This document shows positions 3 through 14,961 of a stretch of DNA of 35,826 nucleotides, piece by piece. The DNA comes from a virus. The notes under the pieces were generated by a model, which was not told where the DNA came from, ran no database searches, and saw only the letters and a list, made by a program, of their open reading frames with translations. The stretch covers positions 1 to 35,826 of the IMG/VR virus record IMGVR_UViG_3300021092_003656, one strand, 5' to 3'. Numbering within the stretch: the stretch's first letter is position 1; each line of letters starts with the position of its first letter. Both the position numbers and the translations under genes were made by a program.

Positions 3-806
3 ACACTGTGTGAACGCATAGTTACCAATTTTCAAACTCTCAAAACTACTGTAGAGTTGTGTCAAAGCATGAAACTAGCAGGACTGCGTATTGGCAGCGA
101 TCTCATTCCAGTAATTAATCACCCAGACTTGAATTTGGATTTCCATTCTTTACCCATGCAAGATGAGATGTTACATGCAATTAATGAAGCAAAAATAACT
201 ATGAAAAATTCAGGTCTGCGTTTTTCAGCTCATCCTTCTGAATTCATAAGTTTAACTTCTGAAAACCCCAAAGTAATTGCCAACAGTATTCGTGATTTGA
301 TTGCTCATGCACTTGTATTTGAATTGCTTGATCTACCTGAATCATATGAAGCACCTCTGAACATTCATATTCGCAAAGATGGTAATGCAGAAGTAATTTA
401 TAACAATGTGATACAAAGTTTGAAGCAGTGCCCTGCTTGTGTTACCAAGCGATTAGTATTTGAGAACAACGACAACAAAAAAGGCGTGTGGAGTATTAAG
501 AATCTTGTTACTTATTTTCATGCTAGACAGGGTATTCCTATTACATATGACAATTTGCATCATGAAATGTTACCAGATGGTTTGAGTCACCGTCAAGCAT
601 TTGAGGCTGCATATGCCACGTGGCCGGGCTATATACCCATCTTTCATTATTCAGAAGGCATTAATGGTAGTCGCAAGCATGCAGATTATGCTACTAGCTT
701 GCCTTCGGATTATGACTTGCCAGTAGTTTGGGAAGTGGAACTCAAGGCTAAGGACAGAGCTATTAAACGCATGCAAAAGCAGCTGTTGCTTGAAAGCAAG
801 CAATGA
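3..806 (+). CDS. uvdE: UV damage endonuclease UvdE-like, 5' end outside window
   Basis: TIM-barrel endonuclease of the UvdE/UVDE family, which nicks DNA 5' to UV photoproducts. Seen: the strand and turn IGSDLIP near the start, then RFSAHPSEF, then NIHI, then FENNDNKKG and YDNLHHEM. These match the family's HPxQF, ENDD and D-x-HH metal-binding motifs in order. The frame is open to the window edge and codes for family-like sequence (CERIVTNFQTL) before the first internal ATG at 69, so the true start lies upstream. The stop overlaps the next gene's start as ATGA, so the two are probably cotranscribed. T4 uses DenV for the same job, so this is an alternative repair enzyme. Family assignment is firm; lesion range is unknown. 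Confidence 0.85.
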   Translation, partial: TLCERIVTNFQTLKTTVELCQSMKLAGLRIGSDLIPVINHPDLNLDFHSLPMQDEMLHAINEAKITMKNSGLRFSAHPSEFISLTSENPKVIANSIRDLIAHALVFELLDLPESYEAPLNIHIRKDGNAEVIYNNVIQSLKQCPACVTKRLVFENNDNKKGVWSIKNLVTYFHARQGIPITYDNLHHEMLPDGLSHRQAFEAAYATWPGYIPIFHYSEGINGSRKHADYATSLPSDYDLPVVWEVELKAKDRAIKRMQKQLLLESKQ

Positions 807-1546
807 AACGTATTTTAATCGTTGATGCAACAAATTTGTTGTATCGTGTTTATCATGTTTTAAAAGGCCCAAACACTAATGACATGATTAGTGCATACAT
901 GCGTAGCATTAACAAGTACATACGCATGTTTGAACCTACATCAATTTATGCTGTATCAGACAAACGATTAATACATGGTAAGAAAAATTATCGCCGCCAA
1001 GAACATAATTACAAACAAAACAGGGATAGTTCCATGTGGCAAACTGTGCATGCAGCAGAAGATAAAATTCATGAAACTATGCAACAACAAGGCATTCATC
1101 TCATGTTTCCAGGTATTTTGGAAGCAGATGATGTGATAGCATTCCTTTGCAATCATTTAGAAGGTACAAAGACAGTTGTTTCTACTGATAATGATATGGC
1201 TCAACTAATTAACTCATGTGTGGAGCTATATTCACCCATTAAAAAAATTGTGATTAATTTACAAAATTTTGATCAACACTTTCCTGTATCAATAGACAAA
1301 TATTTATTATATAAGAGCATCATGGGTGATGCATCTGATAACATTGAAGGACTGGCTGGGTATGGTAAAGTTAAAGCAAAAAGATTGTCAGAGAATTATG
1401 AAGTAGATTTTAATAAACTCTCTGTAGACCTACAGCACCAACAACTCAATAATATGCGATTAATGAATTTAAATCAAGGTTTAATTGAGCATCCAGAGGA
1501 GCGTGATTGTTATTTACAACAGCTTGCTACTATTGGTGATCAGTAA
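803..1546 (+). CDS. 5'-3' exonuclease / T4 RNase H-like flap nuclease
   Basis: Structure-specific 5' nuclease (PIN/FEN-like), expected to remove Okazaki RNA primers and flaps at the phage fork. Seen in 247 residues: D8 in ILIVDATN, the helical arch YRRQEHNYKQNR (about 63-74), EADDVIAF (E107, D109, D110), STDND (D129, D131) and GDASDN (D176, D179) followed by a helix-hairpin-helix, GLAGYGKVKAKRL. This is the full acidic metal-site set of the family that includes T4 rnh and the N-terminal domain of Pol I. It overlaps the UvdE-like gene by 4 nt (ATGA). Its last 17 nt overlap the convergent minus-strand gene. Confidence 0.88.
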   Translation: MKRILIVDATNLLYRVYHVLKGPNTNDMISAYMRSINKYIRMFEPTSIYAVSDKRLIHGKKNYRRQEHNYKQNRDSSMWQTVHAAEDKIHETMQQQGIHLMFPGILEADDVIAFLCNHLEGTKTVVSTDNDMAQLINSCVELYSPIKKIVINLQNFDQHFPVSIDKYLLYKSIMGDASDNIEGLAGYGKVKAKRLSENYEVDFNKLSVDLQHQQLNNMRLMNLNQGLIEHPEERDCYLQQLATIGDQ

Positions 1547-4447: not shown

Positions 4448-4672
4448 ATGGCAGCCTCAAAAACAAATCCCCAAGCAGGAAGCAGAACACCTGGTCATAA
4501 GACTTCCTTTAACAGAAGAAGACTTCTAGAAGGTAAAGAAGTAAAGCCTATTTGGTATTGTGGTAAATGGGAAGGCCATGGCTCGTATATGGCTGGCCAT
4601 ATTGACGGTATAACTGTTAATGATAAAAATGGAAAACCGCTTCCTTTCAGAAGTATTGGAATTTTAGAATAA
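4448..4672 (+). CDS. Small hypothetical protein
   Basis: 74 residues. A basic, Ser/Thr-rich N-terminus (KTNPQAGSRTPGHKTSFNRRR) precedes a short domain with aromatic residues (PIWYCGKWEGHGSYMAGH) and a compact C-terminus ending FRSIGILE. There is no Shine-Dalgarno site; TATAAT at 4440-4445 ends 2 nt before the ATG, so transcription could begin at or just inside the gene. It lies between the terminator and the tmRNA. No family recognised. Confidence 0.6.
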   Translation: MAASKTNPQAGSRTPGHKTSFNRRRLLEGKEVKPIWYCGKWEGHGSYMAGHIDGITVNDKNGKPLPFRSIGILE

Positions 4673-4684
4673 ATAGATTATAAT
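4656..4684 (+). promoter_or_regulatory. Sigma70-like promoter for tmRNA
   Basis: TTGGAA (4656-4661), 17-nt spacer, TATAAT (4679-4684). The predicted start near 4691 gives a short leader that RNase P would remove to leave the mature end at 4704. Confidence 0.55.
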
Positions 4685-4703: not shown

Positions 4704-5104
4704 GGGGCTGAATGGAATCGATTGAATGGTGTAGGTATAGGTTGCAAGTATTGGGGCATTCCAATTAAAAATAGCAAACAAATCAATTGCCGAAGATAAC
4801 TTCGACATGGCCATGAGTCTAGAAGAAGCTGATGCAGTTCTTGCACAGTATGGCTTCGAAGACGCAGAAGCCGAACTCGAACTAGTTTAGTTCGATCGTC
4901 TTGCTGTAGATAAAAGCTTGTAGAGCAAGGCGTGTTACTAGCTTTCGACTTGATGTGTTTTAATGGTTATCTATCAAGCGTATAAAATCATTATATTTAA
5001 TATGTTTTGTCTGGTTTAATATATTATGAATCTCAACCAGAATACACTTGTAGTGGCTTATAGTGAATCTTTTCAAGACCTGGGTTCAAATCCCAGCAGC
5101 TCCA
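4704..5104 (+). ncRNA. ssrA: One-piece phage tmRNA (SsrA RNA) with 38-codon tag frame
   Basis: tmRNA rescues stalled ribosomes by acting as tRNA(Ala) and then as mRNA for a tag. Seen: acceptor strand GGGGCTG (4704-4710) pairs with CAGCTCC (5097-5103), and the T arm is CTGGG-TTCAAAT-CCCAG. ATTGG (4750-4754) pairs with CCAAT (4761-4765) as the PK1 stem. The tag frame opens at GCA (4774) after an A-rich stretch and ends at TAG (4888-4890). That stop lies in a 7-bp hairpin (4878-4884 with 4888-4894), as in helix 5. PK2: CTTGCT/AGCAAG (4900-4905, 4924-4929) with AAAGCT/AGCTTT (4913-4918, 4940-4945). PK3: CTTGAT/ATCAAG (4949-4954, 4973-4978) with AATGGTT/AATCATT. PK4 stem: CTGGTT/AACCAG (5011-5016, 5035-5040). 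The 3' CCA is not encoded (A then GGA). Confidence 0.93.
4774..4890 (+). other. tmRNA tag-peptide reading frame
   Basis: 38 codons plus TAG. The tag begins ANKSIAEDNF, the usual Ala-Asn start, and ends AEAELELV. It has 11 acidic residues and one Lys. Typical bacterial tags are much shorter and end in LAA or similar. The resume codon GCA is inferred from the AATA-GCA-AAC context, which resembles E. coli tmRNA. Confidence 0.8.
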
Positions 5105-5106
5105 GG

Positions 5107-5114
5107 AATAAATA
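5107..5114 (+). promoter_or_regulatory. AATAAATA late-promoter-like box
   Basis: AATAAATA, 4 nt before the GTG of the long fibre gene and directly after the tmRNA 3' end. It resembles the T4 late box TATAAATA. AGGA at 5104-5107 could also act as a distant Shine-Dalgarno site. Confidence 0.5.
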
Positions 5115-5118
5115 ATTC

Positions 5119-8100
5119 GTGGCAATTGTCAATATAGCTGAATTATACACTGCATTTAAGACTGGCAAATTTCCGTCAGAAGCAGATTTTAAGAATCTAA
5201 TTGATTCTAGCTACAACTATTTTTTACCTGCTTCAGCTTACCCGGTAAATTCTGAAATAGTTTTGCCTGGTGACTTAATAGTCTCTGGTAGTTTAAGTGC
5301 GGTCGACACCTTTACTAGCTTATATAAAATATTATCAGGTAACAGAGATTTAGCAGAAATATTTTTCTTAAAAACGTTAGGTGAATCAGTACATACAAGT
5401 GTCTTACAAAATAGTGGAAAATGGGATCAGGCATATACAGCAACTTCAGCAAATTCAGCTGAATGGGATAGTGTATATAGCACTACACAAAGCAATAGTG
5501 GGGGCTGGGAATCAGTTGAAACATCTGTAAGAGATGCATCAGCTAATTGGAATAGCAATTATACATCTTCAAGAACCACTTCTGCTAACTGGGATAGTAC
5601 CTATACATCTAGTAGAAATAATTCTGCTAATTGGAATTCCGCCTACAGTACTACACAAAGTAATTCTGCAGGGTGGGAGAGTGTAGAAACATCTGTAAGG
5701 GATACATCCGCTAACTGGAATAGTGTATATAGTACTACCCAAAATAATAGTGGAGGGTGGGAATCAGTCGAAACAACAGTAAGGTCACTCTCAGATGCTT
5801 GGGAAGAATCTAGTTTTATATCAGATGTTGCTGCTGTATCAGCTAATTGGAACAGCAATTATACATCTAGTAGAAATAATTCTGCTAATTGGGATTCAGT
5901 TTATACATCTAGTAGAAACAACTCTGCTAACTGGGATAGTGTTTATGGTAGTGTAGCTGCTGTTAGTGCAAGCTGGAACGATGGTGGAGGAACATACACC
6001 TCAGTAAGTCAGAATAGTGCTAAGTGGGATAATAATTACACATCTGTAAGGGATACATCTGCTAATTGGGATCAAGCTTATAGCTCTGTAACCAATGATA
6101 TAGCCCCGGTAACTGCTAACTGGGATCAAGCTTATAGCTCTGTAACCAATGATATAGCCCCGGTAACTGCTAACTGGAATTCGACATATACATCGGTTTC
6201 AGAAATATCAGCTGGTTGGGATAGTGTTAAGAACACTGTACAAGCACTATCCACGACTTGGGAAGAAAGTGCTGAAATACTACCTACAGTAACAAACTAT
6301 CTTTCTACAAACGACGTAAGAACACTAAGCAATACTGTAACAGATAGAATTAGCGCCGGTGGAATAGTAATTTCACCTAAGATTGGAACGCTAGTTAAAA
6401 ACTCAGATTACCCTGCCTTAAGTGCAACGCTTCGGCAAAATTACGATTTCTTTAATTCCGAATCAACTTTTGCATTACCTGGCGGCTTGATACTTAAAGG
6501 CCAATCACCTACTTACGATACTTCCGTAAGGAATTTACCTAACCTAGGTGTCTACGGACTTCATATTCAAAACGTAGATAACATGGACCCAGGCACAACA
6601 TTTGTAAGTGATGGAAGAGCCGCCATTACACACGGAATGACTTTTAGAGCAGGTATTAATAACTTTACCGGGGGTTCAGATCACACCCACGTAATGTGGG
6701 TAGGCGCGCCATTTAACGCTACCCGAGAATGGCAAATGACCATGGGTGGTAATGTTAGCGATGTTTATGGTTATAACCTACCTAGCGGGTATACAAATAG
6801 ATTTTTTGTACACACCCTACCTCAATTTCAAATTTCTACAACTATTACTGCCAATCAGGGTGGATTTGTTGACACTAACAACGCTTTACTTTTAACAAAT
6901 ACTGATAGATTGACAGGGGTATTAATTGGAGTTAACTCAACCACCAATACAAACTATTCTCTAATCAATGTTGGTGAGGTTGTCACTCTGGCTGTTAACC
7001 CAGGGGTCGCCGGTATAGTAGCAGCATCATATAATGCACAGTGTACTCAGGTTTCTGCTAACCCAACGCTCTCCACGTTTAGATTTGATTTATTTATAGG
7101 TAATCAATCCAACTGGGTACCAGCACAAAAAACAAGACAAAATGTCAATTTACAGTCTAGAGCAAATGGAGGGAACCCTGGTGTCTCTATTATTACAAGT
7201 CAAATTGGAACACCAGGTACTGATTACGTAGGTCTTACAGGTAATTATAAAAATATTCCTAAACATGTTTTAGTTAGATTTACTAATTCTAGTGTTTTAA
7301 CTGGACTTAAGAGTGGCTCCCCTCTTACATTATGGGTACCAAGGGAAATGCCCTCCACATCCCCTGCGGGAACAGGATTTATTTTACCAGATAGACCCAA
7401 CAACACCTTAACCAACAGTAATACTTACAGATACGGCTATTTTGATGCTTATGTAAGAGCAAAAAATGGAAACGATCTAGAAATTACTATAGGTAATTTA
7501 ATGGATTCATATGCATTTGAAAACATAACAATATCTTGTTCTGCAGCTGGAAATGCTGGCTGGGTATTGTACGGTGGTTCACAAGACACAGTACATAGAC
7601 CAACATTCGGTACAGCAGGGTTTTATTTTGAGAGAGAGAACTATAGGTTTACCAGTGCAGATAATTTTTCTTATCTTAGCGGAGGTACAATTAAAAACAG
7701 TGTACTAGGTAGTGTATCAGAGTCTTACGGTAATTTTTCTTACGGCTTAGGATATCAAGGTGTAGTAGTAGGTAATTTTTCTGGTAATTTTGCAGGAAGA
7801 AACAATTATGTTTATGGTAATAATTCTGTCACCGTAGGTGGTGAATCATTAATTAGCAACGGATCTAATCAGGTTGTTATAGGTTTATACAATCAACCGT
7901 CATCAAGTCTCTTTATTGTTGGTAACGGCACTTCGGATACAGTTAGAAGAAATTTATTTGAGATTAATTCGACAACGGTAACTATTAGTGCAGGTTTAAA
8001 TATTTCTAACAGCATAGATTTAGCAGGAACAGGAAATGGCAGAAACAGTAATAACTGGGTAAGTAATTATAATACAACAACAACCAATTCCGGATACTGG

Positions 8101-11100
8101 CAACCAGATTTTGCATTAAGTACCGTTTTGCAATACCTCTCTAGCAATGAAGTTACCATAGGAGCCCTTACCCATCTAGCAAGTTTATCAGTAACAGATC
8201 TTTATAGTGCTACTGCAGGGAATTCAGCTGTAATTTCTGATAGTGACGATACACCTGGTACCGGGGCAAACACTTTACATATATCATTTTTAAATGGCGT
8301 AAATGTTAGTTCTAATTTAAGCGCCAGGAATATAGTTTATGCTTTTAACGGAAATAGTAATGATTGGAATTCGGTTTACAGTACAACCAGAACTAATTCA
8401 GCTGGTTGGGAGAGTGTTGAAACTCTAGTAAGATCATTGTCGGATAGTTGGGAAGAATCAGCTTTTATAACACCGTTACAAACCGCGTCTGCTAGTTGGG
8501 ATTCGGTTTACAGTACAACCAGAACTAATTCAGCTGGTTGGGGGAGTGTCGAAACTCTAGTAAGATCATTGTCGGATAGTTGGGAAGAATCAGCTTTTAT
8601 AACACCGTTACAAACCGCGTCTGCTAGTTGGGATAGCACTTACACATCAGTAAGTGAAGCTAGCGCCAATTGGGATAGTACTTACACCTCGGTAAGTGAA
8701 ACATCAGCTGATTGGGATAGTACCTATACTTCTGTAAGTGAGACGTCAGCTGATTGGGATAGTACTTATACTTCTGTAAGTGAGACTTCAGCTAATTGGG
8801 ATGCTACATATACAGACGTCAGTGAGACTTCAGCTAATTGGGATGCTACATATACAGACGTCAGTGAGACGTCAGCTAATTGGGATGCTACATATACAGC
8901 TGTAAGTGAGACGTCAGCTAATTGGGATGCTACATATACAGCTGTAAGTGAGACGTCAGCTAATTGGGATGCTACATATACAGCTGTAAGTGAGACGTCA
9001 GCTGATTGGGATAGTACCTATACTTCTGTAAGTGAGACGTCAGCTGATTGGGATAGTACCTATACTTCTGTAAGTGAGACGTCAGCTGATTGGGATAGTA
9101 CTTATACTTCTGTAAATGAGACTTCAGCCGACTGGAATTCAACTTATACATCGGTTTCAGAGACGTCAGCTGATTGGGATAGTACTTATACTTCTGTAAA
9201 TGAGACTTCAGCTGATTGGGATAGTACTTATACATCGGTTTCAGAGACGTCAGCTGATTGGGATAGTACTTATACTTCTGTAAGTGAGACTTCAGCCGAC
9301 TGGAATTCAACTTATACATCGGTTTCAGAGACTTCAGCCGACTGGGATAGTACTTATACTTCTGTAAGTGAAGCTAGCGCCAATTGGGATTCAACTTATA
9401 CATCGGTAAGCGAAACTTCGGCTGACTGGGACAGCACTTACACCTCGGTAAGCGAAACCAGTGCTAACTGGGATCAAGCTTATACATCGGTAAGCGAAAC
9501 TTCGGCTGACTGGGACAGCACTTACACCTCGGTAAGCGAAACCAGTGCTAACTGGGATCAAGCTTATAGCTCTGTAACCAATGATATAGCCCCGGTAACT
9601 GCTAACTGGGATCAAGCTTATAGCTCTGTAACCAATGATATAGCCCCGGTAACTGCTAACTGGGATCAAGCTTATAGTTCTGTAACCAATGATATAGCCC
9701 CGGTAACTGCTAACTGGGATGCCACATATGATTATGTTAATAACAACTCCTTAAAATGGAACGGTACCTATACAACCTACAACACGCTTAGCAATAGCTA
9801 CATAAGAGATATAGGTGACAATATGATCGGGAAGTTAACAACTTCTCAAACCTTGTCTACTAATTTTACAAATGCAGATGAGTTTGTATCTAAACGATAT
9901 GTCGATTCACTGGTTTTAGAGTTTGCCTCCGTTAGCGGTAATTTTGTATCTTCATTATATTACACAAAAACTGATGTGGATGAAATATTAATACCTCTTC
10001 AATCTTCTAGAGATACGGTAAATGTGTTAAGCGGAGATTGGAACAACGTCTATACCGACGTTAGTAACACTTCTGCTACCTGGGACGCCACATACACCGA
10101 CGTTAGTGAAACATCAGCTGATTGGGATCAAGCATATAGTTCTGTAACCAATGATATAGCCACGGTATCTGCTAACTGGGATGCCACATACACCGACGTT
10201 AGTGAAACATCAGCTGATTGGAACAATGTCTATACAGACGTTAGCAATACATCAGCTAATTGGGATGCTACATATACAGACGTCAGTGAAACCTCTGCTA
10301 ACTGGGATGCCACATACACTTCCGTTAGTGAAACATCAGCTAATTGGGATGCTACATACACATCTGTAAGTGAGACTTCAGCTGATTGGGTTAGTACTTA
10401 TACATCGGTTTCAGAGACGTCAGCTGATTGGGATAGTACTTATACTTCTGTAAATGAGACTTCAGCTGATTGGGATAGTACCTATACTTCTGTAAATGAG
10501 ACTTCAGCCGACTGGGATAGTACTTATACTTCTGTAAATGAGACTTCAGCCGACTGGAATTCAACTTATACATCGGTTTCAGAGACTTCAGCCGACTGGA
10601 ATTCAACTTATACATCGGTTTCAGAGACTTCAGCCGACTGGGATAGTACTTATACTTCTGTAAATGAGACTTCAGCTGATTGGGATAGTACTTATACTTC
10701 TGTAAATGAGACTTCAGCTGATTGGGACAGCACTCACACAACTGTTAATAGTTTAAGTAATTTAAGATATACACTCACACCTTACATGGCTTCTATGACC
10801 CCCGCGGTGCAAATGGAATATAGTAATTATATTACACTAAGTGCAAATGATCTAGGAAATAGATTGTTAGAAGGCGGATCATTAAGAGGTATGCTGTATC
10901 TTGATATGACAAACAGTAATGTAGCTAAACATCTCAGAGTTCAAGCCACCCAGACTACCCCACCTAATTGGTCTGATGAAACCTCAACAGATATTATTAA
11001 ATTGAGCGGAACAAATACTCTCAAAAATGTTCGCTCTTTGGTAAAGCAGTTTGTCGGGGCAGCAATAGATGTTGGTGGAAGTACTAAAGTTATATTCCAA

Positions 11101-11265
11101 GCGTCTGATGCTTTGGAAAACGACGGTACTTCAAATCTGCCTTTAGTTTCTATGGATTATAATCCCGCAAATCCAATTCATTTAAGAATCGGATTAGATG
11201 CATTAAGCACGGAGGTTCTACTGTCTTACATCGCATTAAGCGGTGGGTTTATAAGAGTAGAATAA
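5119..11265 (+). CDS. Giant repeat-rich tail fibre / adhesin
   Basis: 2048 residues, GTG start. A unique N-terminus (1-100; AIVNIAELYTAFKTGKFPSE) probably attaches to the virion. Three blocks of a 14-residue repeat (consensus SADWDSTYTSVSET, Trp every 14) follow at about residues 102-367, 1080-1533 and 1640-1875; the period of two heptads suggests a trimeric coiled coil. The middle (about 395-1000) is non-repetitive, mostly beta, with a YadA-head-like stretch (GLGYQGVVVGNFSGNFAGR) near 870. The C-terminus (from about 1880) is unique and ends LSGGFIRVE, perhaps the receptor-binding tip. It is followed after 4 nt by the Ig-like protein gene. No chaperone is recognised. Role inferred from architecture and context. 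Confidence 0.82.
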   Translation: MAIVNIAELYTAFKTGKFPSEADFKNLIDSSYNYFLPASAYPVNSEIVLPGDLIVSGSLSAVDTFTSLYKILSGNRDLAEIFFLKTLGESVHTSVLQNSGKWDQAYTATSANSAEWDSVYSTTQSNSGGWESVETSVRDASANWNSNYTSSRTTSANWDSTYTSSRNNSANWNSAYSTTQSNSAGWESVETSVRDTSANWNSVYSTTQNNSGGWESVETTVRSLSDAWEESSFISDVAAVSANWNSNYTSSRNNSANWDSVYTSSRNNSANWDSVYGSVAAVSASWNDGGGTYTSVSQNSAKWDNNYTSVRDTSANWDQAYSSVTNDIAPVTANWDQAYSSVTNDIAPVTANWNSTYTSVSEISAGWDSVKNTVQALSTTWEESAEILPTVTNYLSTNDVRTLSNTVTDRISAGGIVISPKIGTLVKNSDYPALSATLRQNYDFFNSESTFALPGGLILKGQSPTYDTSVRNLPNLGVYGLHIQNVDNMDPGTTFVSDGRAAITHGMTFRAGINNFTGGSDHTHVMWVGAPFNATREWQMTMGGNVSDVYGYNLPSGYTNRFFVHTLPQFQISTTITANQGGFVDTNNALLLTNTDRLTGVLIGVNSTTNTNYSLINVGEVVTLAVNPGVAGIVAASYNAQCTQVSANPTLSTFRFDLFIGNQSNWVPAQKTRQNVNLQSRANGGNPGVSIITSQIGTPGTDYVGLTGNYKNIPKHVLVRFTNSSVLTGLKSGSPLTLWVPREMPSTSPAGTGFILPDRPNNTLTNSNTYRYGYFDAYVRAKNGNDLEITIGNLMDSYAFENITISCSAAGNAGWVLYGGSQDTVHRPTFGTAGFYFERENYRFTSADNFSYLSGGTIKNSVLGSVSESYGNFSYGLGYQGVVVGNFSGNFAGRNNYVYGNNSVTVGGESLISNGSNQVVIGLYNQPSSSLFIVGNGTSDTVRRNLFEINSTTVTISAGLNISNSIDLAGTGNGRNSNNWVSNYNTTTTNSGYWQPDFALSTVLQYLSSNEVTIGALTHLASLSVTDLYSATAGNSAVISDSDDTPGTGANTLHISFLNGVNVSSNLSARNIVYAFNGNSNDWNSVYSTTRTNSAGWESVETLVRSLSDSWEESAFITPLQTASASWDSVYSTTRTNSAGWGSVETLVRSLSDSWEESAFITPLQTASASWDSTYTSVSEASANWDSTYTSVSETSADWDSTYTSVSETSADWDSTYTSVSETSANWDATYTDVSETSANWDATYTDVSETSANWDATYTAVSETSANWDATYTAVSETSANWDATYTAVSETSADWDSTYTSVSETSADWDSTYTSVSETSADWDSTYTSVNETSADWNSTYTSVSETSADWDSTYTSVNETSADWDSTYTSVSETSADWDSTYTSVSETSADWNSTYTSVSETSADWDSTYTSVSEASANWDSTYTSVSETSADWDSTYTSVSETSANWDQAYTSVSETSADWDSTYTSVSETSANWDQAYSSVTNDIAPVTANWDQAYSSVTNDIAPVTANWDQAYSSVTNDIAPVTANWDATYDYVNNNSLKWNGTYTTYNTLSNSYIRDIGDNMIGKLTTSQTLSTNFTNADEFVSKRYVDSLVLEFASVSGNFVSSLYYTKTDVDEILIPLQSSRDTVNVLSGDWNNVYTDVSNTSATWDATYTDVSETSADWDQAYSSVTNDIATVSANWDATYTDVSETSADWNNVYTDVSNTSANWDATYTDVSETSANWDATYTSVSETSANWDATYTSVSETSADWVSTYTSVSETSADWDSTYTSVNETSADWDSTYTSVNETSADWDSTYTSVNETSADWNSTYTSVSETSADWNSTYTSVSETSADWDSTYTSVNETSADWDSTYTSVNETSADWDSTHTTVNSLSNLRYTLTPYMASMTPAVQMEYSNYITLSANDLGNRLLEGGSLRGMLYLDMTNSNVAKHLRVQATQTTPPNWSDETSTDIIKLSGTNTLKNVRSLVKQFVGAAIDVGGSTKVIFQASDALENDGTSNLPLVSMDYNPANPIHLRIGLDALSTEVLLSYIALSGGFIRVE
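5422..6219 (+). repeat. First block of fibre repeats
   Basis: Diverged 14-codon units with Trp at the same phase (NSANWNSxYxSS, NSGGWESVETS), ending in two exact 54-bp units at 6070-6177 that encode DQAYSSVTNDIAPVTANW. Confidence 0.8.
8371..8634 (+). repeat. 132-bp direct tandem duplication in the fibre gene
   Basis: 8371-8502 and 8503-8634 are nearly identical; I see two differing bases. Each encodes 44 residues containing RTNSAGW and RSLSDSWEESAFITPL. The low divergence points to recent duplication. Confidence 0.85.
8632..9555 (+). repeat. 22 tandem 42-bp units in the fibre gene
   Basis: The distance 8632-9555 is exactly 22 x 42 bp. Units encode variants of WDSTYTSVSETSAD. Groups of adjacent units are identical at DNA level (for example the run with GCTACATATACAGC near 8885-9000), a sign of ongoing duplication and gene conversion. 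All three frames stay open on both strands because the unit is a multiple of three. Confidence 0.9.
9556..9717 (+). repeat. Three tandem 54-bp units in the fibre gene
   Basis: Units begin at 9556, 9610 and 9664 and encode DQAYSSVTNDIAPVTANW. The same unit occurs twice at 6070-6177, about 3.5 kb away, almost unchanged. That suggests copying between the two blocks. Confidence 0.88.
10039..10735 (+). repeat. Third block of fibre repeats
   Basis: About 16 more Trp-phased units, mostly 42 bp with one 18-codon unit near 10126. The DNA is closely similar to the 8632-9555 block. Confidence 0.8.
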
Positions 11266-11269
11266 GGTA

Positions 11270-12523
11270 GTGAGATTCAGCTTATTAAAAGGCACTAAAA
11301 TACCTATAATAAAATTAGGTACACCCTTAACAATAATACCATTTACTAATTTAACAATCACCCAACAACCAAGTAGCGTCACGGTATATGATGGGGATAC
11401 TATAGCGTTTGGAGTATCAGGAGTCACAGTACCTACCTTTAATATAACCTATCAATGGCAAATAGCTCTAAATCAATCTTCTACCTTCAATGATATTAAC
11501 TTTGCCACAACTAGAGTTATTTTTCTGTCAACAACAACTAGTTTAAACAATTCTTTAATAAGGTGTAGGCTTAGCGCTTCCAATATAAGGCATCCAAACT
11601 TTACAAGTTCTGCATCATTAAGTGTAAAGCCACTCGATGTTAATATATCTGTAATAAAAAATATACAACAATTAGTGGAAGTTATTGCAGATAGGCCCTT
11701 TACTGTGTCTTGTACAGCTTCTGCTAGTAATAGTACCCCTGTTACTATTGATTGGGAAACTTTAGATTTCCCATATTCAGGAAACTATATTACAGTTGCC
11801 ACAGACTCTCCTATACTTTCCACCTTAAGCATTTCTAGAAATAGTGTTAAAAGACTAAGAGCAAAAATATCTGCAAGAGGCTCTAACCCGGTTTATTCTA
11901 ATGTGGCTATGTTATGTGCGTATGTTCCAAACTTATCTACAAATTATATTTCATGTTCAGCTCGTATTGATAGAGTAGAATGCCCTCCAGATGGCTTCTT
12001 TGAACCAGGGGGCGGTGGATGGGATTATGGTTGGAATACAAAAAATTCTCCTCTTGGCTACGGAACAGCTCCTGACGGTTCACAAGATGCCAGATCAATA
12101 TATACAGAATTTTCTAATTTTACCCCTAGATATGTATCATGGCAATTTAGAGATGAATATAACCCAGGAAGACAATTTAGGATGTCTGTTTGGGCTAGAT
12201 TATTGAGTGGTACTAATGTTAATAGCGGTGAAATAATAAGCGTTACAAAAGACGGTCTTTCTGATAGAGTGTCCATACCGGTAAATGGTAATTTGACTAA
12301 TGAATGGAAGCGTTTTGAAGTTAGATGGACTGTATCACCTGCTGCCGGTTCTTATAATTACCCTACAGTATTTTTACTAGACAATATAACTTTTGGTTCG
12401 CACGTTGCTCTGTGGGGTGCTGAACTAAATATTTTAGGCAACCTACCACCAACACCTCCGCCACCACCGCTTGCGCCATTAAGCGGTAACGCGGTAGTAA
12501 CAATATTTAGACTAAACATATGA
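11270..12523 (+). CDS. Ig-like domain tail/adhesion protein
   Basis: 417 residues, GTG start 4 nt after the fibre stop. Seen: a bacterial/phage Ig-like domain (about 25-125: ITQQPSSVTVYDGD, YQWQ, IRCRLSAS), a second beta domain (about 125-225: FTVSCTASASNSTPVTIDW) and a C-terminal jelly-roll-like domain (about 240-390: SWQFRDEYNPGRQFRMSVWA) that resembles carbohydrate-binding modules. A Pro-rich linker (PPTPPPPPLAPL) comes before the last strand. It overlaps the protease gene by 4 nt (ATGA). Probably a virion surface or fibre-associated protein that binds glycans. Family calls are by pattern only. Confidence 0.68.
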   Translation: MRFSLLKGTKIPIIKLGTPLTIIPFTNLTITQQPSSVTVYDGDTIAFGVSGVTVPTFNITYQWQIALNQSSTFNDINFATTRVIFLSTTTSLNNSLIRCRLSASNIRHPNFTSSASLSVKPLDVNISVIKNIQQLVEVIADRPFTVSCTASASNSTPVTIDWETLDFPYSGNYITVATDSPILSTLSISRNSVKRLRAKISARGSNPVYSNVAMLCAYVPNLSTNYISCSARIDRVECPPDGFFEPGGGGWDYGWNTKNSPLGYGTAPDGSQDARSIYTEFSNFTPRYVSWQFRDEYNPGRQFRMSVWARLLSGTNVNSGEIISVTKDGLSDRVSIPVNGNLTNEWKRFEVRWTVSPAAGSYNYPTVFLLDNITFGSHVALWGAELNILGNLPPTPPPPPLAPLSGNAVVTIFRLNI

Positions 12524-14961
12524 AAAAAGAATTTTTTATAACCGCTTCAACAGAAGACCAAATAGACAGTATTGTTGAACAATTATATACACCTGGAGTT
12601 ATTCCTGAAGGAACTGAAACCCCTTCCCTTTCTCGGTGTGTTGAAGTGAGTGATTACATGTCTTCTTCATCTACAACTATTAAAGCCTTTTTAACAGAGG
12701 AAGAAGCAAATGCTTTAAAAAAATGCCCTGGGGTAGTAATTGTTGAAGAGAGGTTAGACGTTCAATTTGAACCTAATAGTCAAGCTGGTAAAAAAAGACA
12801 ATTAACTACTGTTGGGCAGGCGTTTAATTCTAGTAGTAATACTACCCCTGAACAATGGGGGTTTGGAAGGTGTAATTCTCTATCTGCGCTACCCCCATTT
12901 GATATGGAGTTTACCTATCATTATACAGGTAGTGGTGTTGATGCGATAATTCTTGATTCCGGAATAGTACCAGGTCATCCTGAATGGTTAGATCAAAACG
13001 GTCAAACAAGACTACAGTTTCTTAATTGGTCACTATTTGCCCCTGTTACAGCAGATAGAAATATTACTGTGACTGTTAGCGCTTCACCAGGTAATCCTGG
13101 ACAAAATTCATATTTTATTAATGGTGTTGAAAAAGATACAGTTTATGTTGTGAAAGATAGAGTAGGTGTTCCTACAGCTAGACACCCAGCCGGTGGGTTT
13201 CCTGTTAGTTTTAGAACCGGTGTTTATGATTTTAATTTAGTAAATACAACTAGCGCGCATCCATTTTTTATAGGATCTACTAGTTATGTTCCTTTTAATA
13301 GTGATTATGTTTCTAATAATGGTGCTTCTACTGGTACAGTTTCATTAACGGTTTGGCCAAACAACAACCCACTAGCATCTTCTGGACAGCAAGATACTAT
13401 GTATTATTGGGGTGGCCTCCCCGGATCCGGGGTCGGGGGTGGGGTAATTGCAAGAACAGATTATAATTGTCAATCAGATAGAAGCTTATTTTATCAAGAT
13501 ACCAACGGCCACGGGACACACTGCACAGGAACCGTTGCAGGCTCTAGTTGCGGCTGGGCAATAGATGCACAAATTTTTTCAATGAGAATAAATTTTTCAA
13601 CATCTAACGGGTATGGTAATTCTACTGAAGGTTTATACTTAATGCTTGATTTAATTGAACGGTATCACAAATATAAAAGGACTGTTCCAGGGTTATCTTC
13701 ACGACCTTCTGTAATGAATAATAGTTACGGATATTCATGTGGTACTGTTGATGTTATAGATCAAAAAGTAAAACAATTAACCGATAATGGCATTCATTTT
13801 GTTCATTCTGCGGGCAATGGAAACATATTAATTGTAACCCCGATTGACGATAGAATGAATTCGGGTACGTGTAACAGTAGAGAAGATTCCCCCGCTTATC
13901 CTATCTCTAATTGGACATCACATGAAGATAATCCAGTTATAACAGTAGGGGCTATCGGAGGTAGAACTATTTCTTCTTTAATAGACGCTGTAGCTGCAAG
14001 AGCTGAATACTCTCAGTATGGTAGTGGTGTAAGTATATATGCTCCAGGCTCATATATTCAAAGTGCTTTCATAAGCGGTGTAACATACCCAGGTTATTCA
14101 GGTTATTTCTTGAGCAAGCTAAGCGGGACCTCAATGTCAGGACCCAATATTGCAGGTATTTTATGCACAATATTAGAAAGATTTCCTCATTTTACACCGC
14201 AACAAGCTAAAAATTTTCTAATGCAGTGTGCTAGTGTCAACACTCTCTCCAGCTCCGGTCTAGCAGGCAATTATGGTCTTGGAGACCCTAGTATTAATAA
14301 CCCTTCTCGACCACCTACAACAAATCTAACTGTTAGCAAATTTCCAGCTACATCTATAGCAACAACAACAGCAACTGAATTATTTGCACAGTATCTATCA
14401 CATTGCTATGTAAATACATCAACAATACCACTAAGTACAAATAATATATTTTTCAGTAGGGTGCCATATAGAGATTCAACACAATTTTATTTAAATAGCT
14501 CAACAGACTTAAGATTCTTAAGTGCTTGCCCTCCATCACCTTCCCCCGAGCCTCCTAGTTATACAATATGGGCAGAAAATATTAATGGTCCTTTTTCAAA
14601 CATAGCACTTGTTCCTACACCTGTAACTTTAAACACTGGTAATGGCTTAGTTGTTGCTTCTGTAGCTGGAAATAGTGATTATTTTACCTTTAATGTAGGG
14701 AATAATAAGATATTAAATAAAATTATACTTAGGAATTACAATTCAGTAGATAATGTAGCATGGTTGGGAATTCAATCAGGGTCTCAATGGACAGCAGGAG
14801 ATAATCCAGATCAAATGCTAGCACAACAACACTTTGGACCCGGTAACATAAATCAAGAAATTCTTACCGCTTCTGCTCCCTATAATCAAGGCTCTTATAC
14901 TATGCGAGTGCAGCAATTAGGGGCAAATACAAATTACACAATAGAATTTCAAGTAATTTAA
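12520..14961 (+). CDS. Subtilisin-like serine protease (S8), probably virion-associated
   Basis: 813 residues. Catalytic triad visible: D146 (IILDSGIV), H331 (NGHGTHCTG) and S538 (SGTSMSGP), with oxyanion N433 (SAGNG). Residues 1-85 resemble an I9-type propeptide (FLTEEEANALKKCPGVVIVEE). D and H are 185 residues apart, against about 30 in subtilisin, so a domain of roughly 150 residues (about 165-315, mostly beta) is inserted. After the catalytic domain come a Pro-rich linker (PPSPSPEPP) and a beta-rich C-terminal domain. There is no signal peptide. Being coupled to fibre genes suggests it matures or rides on the tail and may cut host surface proteins. Confidence 0.88.
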   Translation: MKKEFFITASTEDQIDSIVEQLYTPGVIPEGTETPSLSRCVEVSDYMSSSSTTIKAFLTEEEANALKKCPGVVIVEERLDVQFEPNSQAGKKRQLTTVGQAFNSSSNTTPEQWGFGRCNSLSALPPFDMEFTYHYTGSGVDAIILDSGIVPGHPEWLDQNGQTRLQFLNWSLFAPVTADRNITVTVSASPGNPGQNSYFINGVEKDTVYVVKDRVGVPTARHPAGGFPVSFRTGVYDFNLVNTTSAHPFFIGSTSYVPFNSDYVSNNGASTGTVSLTVWPNNNPLASSGQQDTMYYWGGLPGSGVGGGVIARTDYNCQSDRSLFYQDTNGHGTHCTGTVAGSSCGWAIDAQIFSMRINFSTSNGYGNSTEGLYLMLDLIERYHKYKRTVPGLSSRPSVMNNSYGYSCGTVDVIDQKVKQLTDNGIHFVHSAGNGNILIVTPIDDRMNSGTCNSREDSPAYPISNWTSHEDNPVITVGAIGGRTISSLIDAVAARAEYSQYGSGVSIYAPGSYIQSAFISGVTYPGYSGYFLSKLSGTSMSGPNIAGILCTILERFPHFTPQQAKNFLMQCASVNTLSSSGLAGNYGLGDPSINNPSRPPTTNLTVSKFPATSIATTTATELFAQYLSHCYVNTSTIPLSTNNIFFSRVPYRDSTQFYLNSSTDLRFLSACPPSPSPEPPSYTIWAENINGPFSNIALVPTPVTLNTGNGLVVASVAGNSDYFTFNVGNNKILNKIILRNYNSVDNVAWLGIQSGSQWTAGDNPDQMLAQQHFGPGNINQEILTASAPYNQGSYTMRVQQLGANTNYTIEFQVI

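What the first reader, a model, noticed from the sequence alone, without database searches (positions are those of the whole stretch)
4704..5104. A phage-encoded one-piece tmRNA
All the main parts can be drawn by eye: acceptor stem, T arm, PK1 and PK4 stems, two full H-type pseudoknots (PK2, PK3), and a tag frame whose stop lies in a hairpin as in helix 5. Bacterial tmRNA is normally a host gene. A phage copy suggests control of ribosome rescue or of tagged products during infection. If the host is an alphaproteobacterium, whose own tmRNA is typically two-piece, the contrast would be sharper.
Basis: partly seen in the sequence, partly recalled or inferred. Interest (0 to 1): 0.8.

Follow-up and report, generated by a model that had tools for sequence, protein, structure and literature searches.

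The report
Phage tmRNA with long conserved tag
A virus of bacteria carries its own complete gene for tmRNA, the RNA that frees stuck ribosomes, and in related viruses this RNA writes an unusually long, well preserved tail onto unfinished proteins that lacks the usual 'destroy me' ending.

Summary
Window 4704-5104 (+) is a complete one-piece tmRNA: Rfam RF00023, 87.1 bits, cut-off 47. ARAGORN misses it. Twenty-four distinct family sequences, this one included, keep the 7-bp acceptor stem, G3-U70, A73, the T stem and an A four bases before a GCC resume codon; none encodes CCA. Compensatory changes support the pseudoknots. The carrier looks like an uncultured T4-like myovirus.

Phage tmRNA as such is known (PMC9004378, PMC4131195, PMC11915505). 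A scan that ignored the tag found 29 contigs: 28 tags have 33 residues ending ELV, one has 34 ending ELVY. dN/dS is 0.17-0.21. Other phage tags seen end in VA or AA.

Best reading: a working tmRNA that borrows host SmpB, AlaRS, CCA-adding enzyme and protease. No SmpB, ClpP, Lon or SspB was found in the records searched, mostly fragments. The fate of tagged proteins is open. The host is unknown, so the alphaproteobacterial contrast could not be tested. New variant of a known kind.

The parts
4704..5104 (+). one-piece tmRNA gene (ssrA), acceptor G1 to discriminator A73; CCA not encoded
   Evidence: RF00023 87.1 bits; boundaries by the 7-bp acceptor stem
4704..4710 (+). acceptor stem 5' strand GGGGCTG with G3 of the G3-U70 pair
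   Evidence: paired with 5097-5103
5097..5103 (+). acceptor stem 3' strand CAGCTCC
5080..5096 (+). T arm, 5-bp stem and 7-nt loop TTCAAAT
4751..4764 (+). PK1 first stem TTGG/CCAA
   Evidence: 2 of 4 pairs with double changes
4789..4890 (+). tag reading frame: GCC resume codon, 33 codons, stop TAG 4888-4890; AEDNFDMAMSLEEADAVLAQYGFEDAEAELELV
4785..4785 (+). A at position -4 of the resume codon (equivalent of E. coli A86)
   Evidence: A in 24 of 24; role of A86 from PMC2481249 (passages)
4877..4895 (+). hairpin (helix 5 type) that encloses the tag stop codon
   Evidence: 2 of 5 pairs with double changes
4897..4945 (+). PK2: stems 4897-4905/4924-4932 and 4913-4918/4940-4945
   Evidence: 11 of 15 pairs with double changes
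4949..4993 (+). PK3: stems 4949-4954/4973-4978 and 4961-4968/4986-4993
   Evidence: 6 of 14 pairs with double changes
4998..5040 (+). PK4: stems 4998-5003/5021-5026 and 5011-5016/5035-5040
   Evidence: 6 of 12 pairs with double changes; first stem paired in 85.9% of cells
4668..4675 (+). AATAAATA, match to the T4-type late promoter motif NATAAATA (motif recalled)
   Evidence: at -36; 9 of 24 family members have the motif within 100 nt upstream and 15 do not; shuffles mean 0.96, 0 of 2000 reach 9; function inferred

Best explanation
It is a functional one-piece tmRNA gene of an uncultured T4-like myovirus. During infection the RNA is trimmed and given CCA by host enzymes, charged with alanine by host AlaRS through G3-U70, and bound by host SmpB. 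It enters ribosomes stalled on broken or stop-less mRNA. The ribosome switches to the GCC at 4789, so that alanine plus a 33-residue acidic tag is added, and terminates at the TAG in the hairpin. Ribosomes are thereby recycled for phage protein synthesis. The tag sequence is selected for. My leading guess is that it is still a protease signal, recognised by a host protease in some way other than the usual LAA end (roughly 55%), rather than a neutral or protective tail. Shown: structure, identity elements, frame and its conservation. Inferred: expression, charging, tagging, protease fate. The confidence given is for the tmRNA reading as a whole, not for the protease step.
For: RF00023 hit over the full model. 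In 24 of 24 distinct family sequences (window included): intact 7-bp acceptor, G3-U70, A73, 5-bp T stem, A at -4 and GCC resume codon. Double compensatory changes in 30 of 65 and 20 of 73 pairs, far above slid controls. Tag: 29 of 29 contigs found by a scan that ignores the tag carry it; 28 are 33 residues ending ELV, one is 34 ending ELVY. dN 0.094 against dS 0.550 over 33 codons, 0.122 against 0.595 over codons 10-33. ARAGORN reads the same 33-residue tag in 3 of the 4 family sequences that it detects. Head, sheath, portal and polymerase genes on the 229,717-base contig. Partner genes were not seen in the phage records, so should come from the host: SmpB 0 of 14 and 0 of 23 records, the two sets overlapping; ClpP, SspB and Lon 0 of 24 each. 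Those 24 are 24 of the 30 carrier contigs (window plus the 29).
Against: No expression, charging or tagging data exist. Most records are fragments, so absence of SmpB or proteases from them is weak evidence. The tag ends in V, not AA; in E. coli the last three residues LAA set degradation strength and AAV and ASV are weaker (PMC9097571, passages), so protease targeting is uncertain. ARAGORN misses 20 of 24 family sequences, and in L016 it reads a shorter in-frame tag. One measure of the pair counts, the number of further pair types, does not exceed its shuffles (50 against a mean of 56.8; 35 against 35.9). A small hairpin in the first codons of the tag may add RNA-level constraint there. The dN and dS estimates rest on few codons and on related sequences. 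One relative (L215) appears to have T, not A, at the discriminator position (by eye). BLAST of the gene against 14 bacterial genomes matched none, which the tool marks as uninformative, so a bacterial origin is not traced.
Confidence: 0.85

Rival explanations
1. The phage tmRNA rescues ribosomes but its tag is a stabilising or re-routing signal: proteins finished by it escape the host's LAA-dependent proteolysis or are bound by a dedicated phage or host factor.
For: Tag end is ELV in 28 of 29 and ELVY in 1 of 29 contigs, unlike phage G (QVA), Melnitz (LAA) and 11 of 12 other viral contigs fetched with a 3' pattern (all 11 end in AA; in the twelfth, L217, ARAGORN finds no gene and the tag looks deleted). 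Strong acidity: net charge -7 to -11 over 24 tags. Purifying selection over the tag.
Against: No recogniser is known. No Pfam family or solved-structure sequence matches the tag, and its predicted structure is one short helix of middling confidence. tmRNA tags are generally described as proteolysis tags (established view).
Confidence: 0.25
2. The gene is a passenger: a tmRNA captured from a host, for instance through integration or recombination at the host gene, now without benefit.
For: tmRNA genes serve as integration sites and host fragments do enter phages (PMC9004378, PMC11590407, passages).
Against: Double compensatory changes in 10 of 11 helices and 8 of 12, and low dN/dS, show long-term selection. 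The gene occurs in 29 contigs besides the window, although two of these carry the same tmRNA as the window.
Confidence: 0.05
3. The tag frame doubles as an independent small gene: ATG at 4807 could start a 27-residue protein that ends at the same stop.
For: In-frame ATG codons inside the tag and conservation of the rest of the frame.
Against: Residues before the ATG are also conserved (A1, E2, F5 and D6 invariant in the 20-row alignment; in L215 and L216, not in it, residue 2 is D); no evident ribosome binding site by eye; the start lies inside a structured RNA.
Confidence: 0.05
4. The phage RNA mainly competes with host tmRNA for SmpB, and tagging is secondary.
For: The phage DS6A form has little more than the tRNA-like domain, and such a molecule was reported to inhibit tmRNA strongly, perhaps by titrating SmpB (PMC4131195, PMC11915505, passages).
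Against: A decoy would not need a full, selected reading frame and covarying pseudoknots.
Confidence: 0.05

Closest known systems
Bacterial one-piece tmRNA (ssrA; Rfam RF00023)
   Same: Full-length model match; acceptor with G3-U70, T arm, long H2, four pseudoknots, resume codon with A at -4, stop in a hairpin.
   Different: CCA not encoded; tag 33 residues against a most frequent length of 10 (PMC11915505, passage); tag ends ELV. The length is inside the range of 8-35 residues given in PMC8012679 (passage).
Bacillus phage G tmRNA
   Same: One-piece tmRNA in a large phage; RF00023 67.6 bits.
   Different: 13-residue tag AKLNITNNELQVA by ARAGORN; unrelated tag.
Methylophage Melnitz tmRNA (PMC9004378)
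   Same: tmRNA of a phage placed in Kyanoviridae in its record, distantly related by a shared DUF6267-type protein (25.5% identity).
   Different: Two-piece (permuted) form, alpha_tmRNA model RF01849, tag ANDNYVPVDYALAA, CCA encoded; linked to a glutamine riboswitch in the paper.
Viral tmRNAs on IMG/VR contigs L220 and L221
   Same: Also a long tag, 31 residues, ANNFSEDMMSFSTSVTRGITVFESAELEMAA.
   Different: Ends in AA; CCA encoded. Likeness to the present tag is weak: shuffling p 0.017 (window tag) and 0.039 (a relative's tag), uncorrected, which does not settle kinship.
Mesoplasma florum tmRNA tag
   Same: Example of a tag read by Lon (PMC9097571, passages); its length, about 27 residues, is recalled.
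   Different: Different sequence and end (recalled); a bacterial gene with its own matched Lon protease. No Lon in 24 phage records.

Membership tests
one-piece (standard) tmRNA | Covariance-model match over the whole gene, 5' half before 3' half | tested here: met
   RF00023 model 1-374, 87.1 bits, E 1.1e-32
one-piece (standard) tmRNA | tRNA-Ala-like acceptor: 7 bp, G3-U70, A73, T arm | tested here: met
   24 of 24 distinct sequences; L215, outside that set, seems to have T73 (by eye)
one-piece (standard) tmRNA | Pseudoknots PK1-PK4 conserved by covariation | tested here: met
   second stem of PK1 not counted; the second stems of PK3 and PK4 show no double changes in the 11-sequence set
one-piece (standard) tmRNA | Resume codon with A at -4, open tag frame, stop codon in helix 5 | tested here: met
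   codon 34 is TAA in 19, TAG in 4 and TAC in 1 (L037, one residue longer) of 24
one-piece (standard) tmRNA | Tag that directs proteolysis | not testable with these tools
   Tag lacks the LAA-type end; fate needs experiment
one-piece (standard) tmRNA | SmpB partner | tested here: inconclusive
   No SmpB in 14 and 23 viral records, the sets overlapping; a host partner is expected but the host is unknown
permuted (two-piece) tmRNA | 3' tRNA half encoded before the 5' half | tested here: not met
   Order of parts is standard; no permuted model is listed, which keeps only the best of overlapping clan hits
phage-borne tmRNA | Gene lies on a phage genome | tested here: met
   229,717-base contig with major head, sheath, portal and polymerase genes, 99.9-100% identical to the window over its length

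The most novel reading that the evidence does not exclude
This virus family has rewritten the output of ribosome rescue. Its tmRNA replaces the host's destroy-me tag with a long acidic address label, ending in ELV, that sends unfinished proteins to a phage-favoured fate (protection, sequestration or a phage-chosen protease) while freeing ribosomes, perhaps late in infection.
Probability: 0.22. Interest if true: 0.8.

Novelty: new variant of a known kind. Interest (0 to 1): 0.5.

Why it matters
In the papers seen here, phage tmRNAs are mostly noted as present or absent. Here the tag itself is under selection, in length, sequence and end, across a diverse group of viruses. That makes a concrete question testable: what reads a viral ribosome-rescue tag, and does the phage keep, hide or destroy the proteins so marked? 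It also suggests that surveys which rest on ARAGORN (PMC7162821 assigned its tmRNAs with it) undercount phage tmRNA, since ARAGORN found only 4 of 24 distinct members here.

Tried and rejected
Chance or false positive: rejected. Two-piece gene: 12 near-miss loci, which I first suspected to be permuted, were one-piece genes with another base in the TGGAATCGA stretch; the 3' end of one, L077, lies outside its locus. Similarity of the tag to other places in the same phage (tblastn, gene itself left out, best E 0.13), to Pfam, to solved-structure sequences or to INPHARED phages (one match, E 7): nothing convincing. Kinship with the 31-residue L220 tag: weak, p 0.017 and 0.039 uncorrected. Structure of the tag: one helix 11-20, mean pLDDT 70.7; too weak for a fold search, so none was run. 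Host by gene similarity: the best-listed cultured phages share only about 31-34% identity (major head protein; DNA polymerase), mostly cyanophages; no host assigned. Sigma-70 promoter: a TTGGAA-17-TATAAT site ends at 4684, but 6 sites were found where 5.2 are expected.

Dropped rows: the 24-sequence set came from a tag-based pattern and a filter for AMSL and ELV, which biases it towards conservation; the tag-independent scan was made to remove this. In one search the resume codon was located by A[AT]T followed by GCNGA, which all 29 met. L077, L215 and L216 are not in the 24. The acceptor stem was left out of the 13-sequence pair count because the aligner shifted it. The first alignments had three loci on the wrong strand (one of them only) and were redone.

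Full report
What is there. Rfam gives one hit in the window at curated cut-off: tmRNA RF00023 at 4704-5107 (+), whole model, 87.1 bits against a cut-off of 47. The gene proper ends at the discriminator A at 5104; the next bases are GGA, so CCA must be added after transcription. ARAGORN misses it and finds only 4 of 24 distinct family sequences; in 3 it reads the 33-residue tag described below, in L016 a shorter in-frame one.

Relatives. The gene has no BLASTN match in 50,697 phage records, but has many in IMG/VR. I collected 24 distinct complete genes, the window's included. Pairwise identity in the gene runs from 66% to nearly 100%, mean 77%. All 24 have seven paired acceptor positions, G3-U70, A73, a perfect five-pair T stem, and no encoded CCA. 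All 24 have A at -4 and GCC as resume codon. In E. coli that A (A86) sets the frame four bases downstream (PMC2481249, passages).

Structure. Two forms of PK3 exist, so I aligned two groups. In 13 sequences with 65 tested pairs, 97.9% of cells pair, 30 pairs have changes on both sides, and sliding the partners leaves 1-9 such pairs and 35-47% pairing. In the other 11 sequences with 73 pairs, 99.8% of cells pair, 20 pairs have double changes, and sliding leaves 0-4. Ten of 11 helices in the first set and 8 of 12 in the second have at least one double change; in the second set the second stems of PK3 and PK4 have none. Of five measures, the number of further pair types does not exceed the shuffles in either set. 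The controls do not remove relatedness fully, and the structures were drawn from one sequence of each set. The second stem of PK1 was not tested.

The tag. The frame from 4789 to 4890 encodes AEDNFDMAMSLEEADAVLAQYGFEDAEAELELV. To avoid choosing relatives by their tag, I scanned viral contigs with a pattern upstream of it. All 29 contigs found carry the same kind of tag: 28 have 33 residues ending ELV, and L037 has 34 ending ELVY. In most the end is LELV; in L060 it is FELV. The 24-gene set contains 19 different peptides, net charge -7 to -11. Mean dN is 0.094 and mean dS 0.550 over all codons; over codons 10-33, outside the region fixed by my first search pattern, they are 0.122 and 0.595. The tag is therefore kept as a peptide. 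A small hairpin at its start could add RNA-level constraint to the first codons.

How unusual. The most frequent tag length is 10 residues (PMC11915505, passage), and a review gives a range of 8-35 (PMC8012679, passage). So 33 is long but inside the range. Twelve other viral contigs with tmRNA were fetched with a 3' pattern (39 contigs, 27 of this family). Their tags are ANTYAMAA (6 contigs), GTTQLALAA (2), GKHYSYAQAA (1) and a 31-residue tag ending in MAA (2); one (L217) appears to have lost most of its tag. Several of these contigs carry the same sequence, so they are not 12 independent cases. Phage G has 13 residues ending QVA and Melnitz 14 ending LAA. In E. coli the last three residues LAA set tag strength, and AAV or ASV ends are weaker (PMC9097571, passages). 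An ELV end kept across a family is the odd feature. Four tag fragments gave no paper, and no title or abstract start listed by the searches on phage tmRNA describes such a tag. The library is open-access only, and full texts were not read.

Carrier. The window is a whole IMG/VR record of 35,826 bases, 99.9-100% identical over its length to part of a 229,717-base contig. That contig encodes a major head protein, tail sheath, portal, baseplate wedge, ribonucleotide reductase and DNA polymerase by PHROGs. Its head protein and polymerase are about 31-34% identical to the best-listed cultured phages, chiefly cyanophages; that these are T4-like is recalled. The host is unknown.

Expression. NATAAATA, the T4-type late promoter motif (recalled), lies within 100 nt upstream in 9 of 24 genes; shuffles average 0.96 and none of 2000 reached 9. 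Fifteen genes lack it there; in two of the nine (L004, L061) it lies ahead of a tRNA gene. In the window it is AATAAATA at -36. Eight of 24 genes follow directly behind a tRNA-Met gene with anticodon CAT (ARAGORN). A leader like GTTCTTTGACAT just before G1 matches a loose pattern in 22 of 24. Late transcription is inferred, not shown. The Melnitz authors proposed early expression for theirs (PMC9004378, passages).

Mechanism. Nothing found in the carriers supplies the partners: SmpB 0 of 14 and 0 of 23 records (overlapping sets), ClpP, SspB and Lon 0 of 24 each, which is 24 of the 30 carrier contigs. Most records are fragments, but the largest carriers searched are 229,717, 217,413, 162,497 and 157,857 bases. 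So host SmpB, AlaRS, CCA-adding enzyme and proteases are the likely partners. Some huge phages do encode SmpB as well as tmRNA (PMC7162821, passages). The best reading is ordinary trans-translation run by a phage RNA, with a tag under selection of its own. Whether this tag destroys, hides or protects its protein is the open point; I lean to a protease signal read differently (about 55%) over a stabilising or re-routing tag (about 25%).

Papers. Passages only: PMC9004378, PMC4131195, PMC7162821, PMC4383926, PMC11590407, PMC5587285, PMC12595487, PMC2481249, PMC9097571, PMC8012679. PMC11915505: abstract, passages and part 1 of its results section.

Verdict. The conserved long tag with a non-standard end makes this a new variant worth an experiment.

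Noticed in passing
window 5119-11265 (+): A 2048-residue open frame begins shortly after the tmRNA and holds arrays of 42-, 54-, 84-, 126- and 132-base repeats; probably a long fibre or adhesin-like protein (inferred). PHROGs gives only a weak match to a family of unknown function.
   Followed up: partly
window 4448-4672 (+): A 74-residue protein without a Pfam match sits just before the tmRNA; by eye, parts of the same kind of frame precede the tmRNA in several relatives (L042, L049, L052, L060, L061).
   Followed up: no
24 family loci, last 16 bases before the tmRNA: A leader like GTTCTTTGACAT is conserved immediately 5' of G1 (loose pattern in 22 of 24), even when a tRNA-Met gene abuts it; it may be a processing or promoter element.
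   Followed up: partly
L217:3510-3794: A viral tmRNA closely related to those of L220 and L221 looks like a natural deletion of most of the 31-residue tag (by eye).
   Followed up: no
L222-L227, contigs up to 424 kb: Six viral contigs carry a tmRNA with the same 8-residue tag ANTYAMAA; in L222 and L225 a cow-rumen-2 RNA lies a few kilobases away.
   Followed up: no
window 57-806 and 803-1546 (+): UvdE-type UV endonuclease directly followed by a 5'-3' exonuclease gene, perhaps a phage DNA repair pair.
   Followed up: no
window 12520-14961 (+): A subtilase-type protease of 813 residues (Pfam Peptidase_S8), with distant matches in cyanophages.
   Followed up: no
L215, end of its tmRNA: The discriminator base appears to be T in place of A (by eye), which would be unusual for alanine charging.
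   Followed up: no
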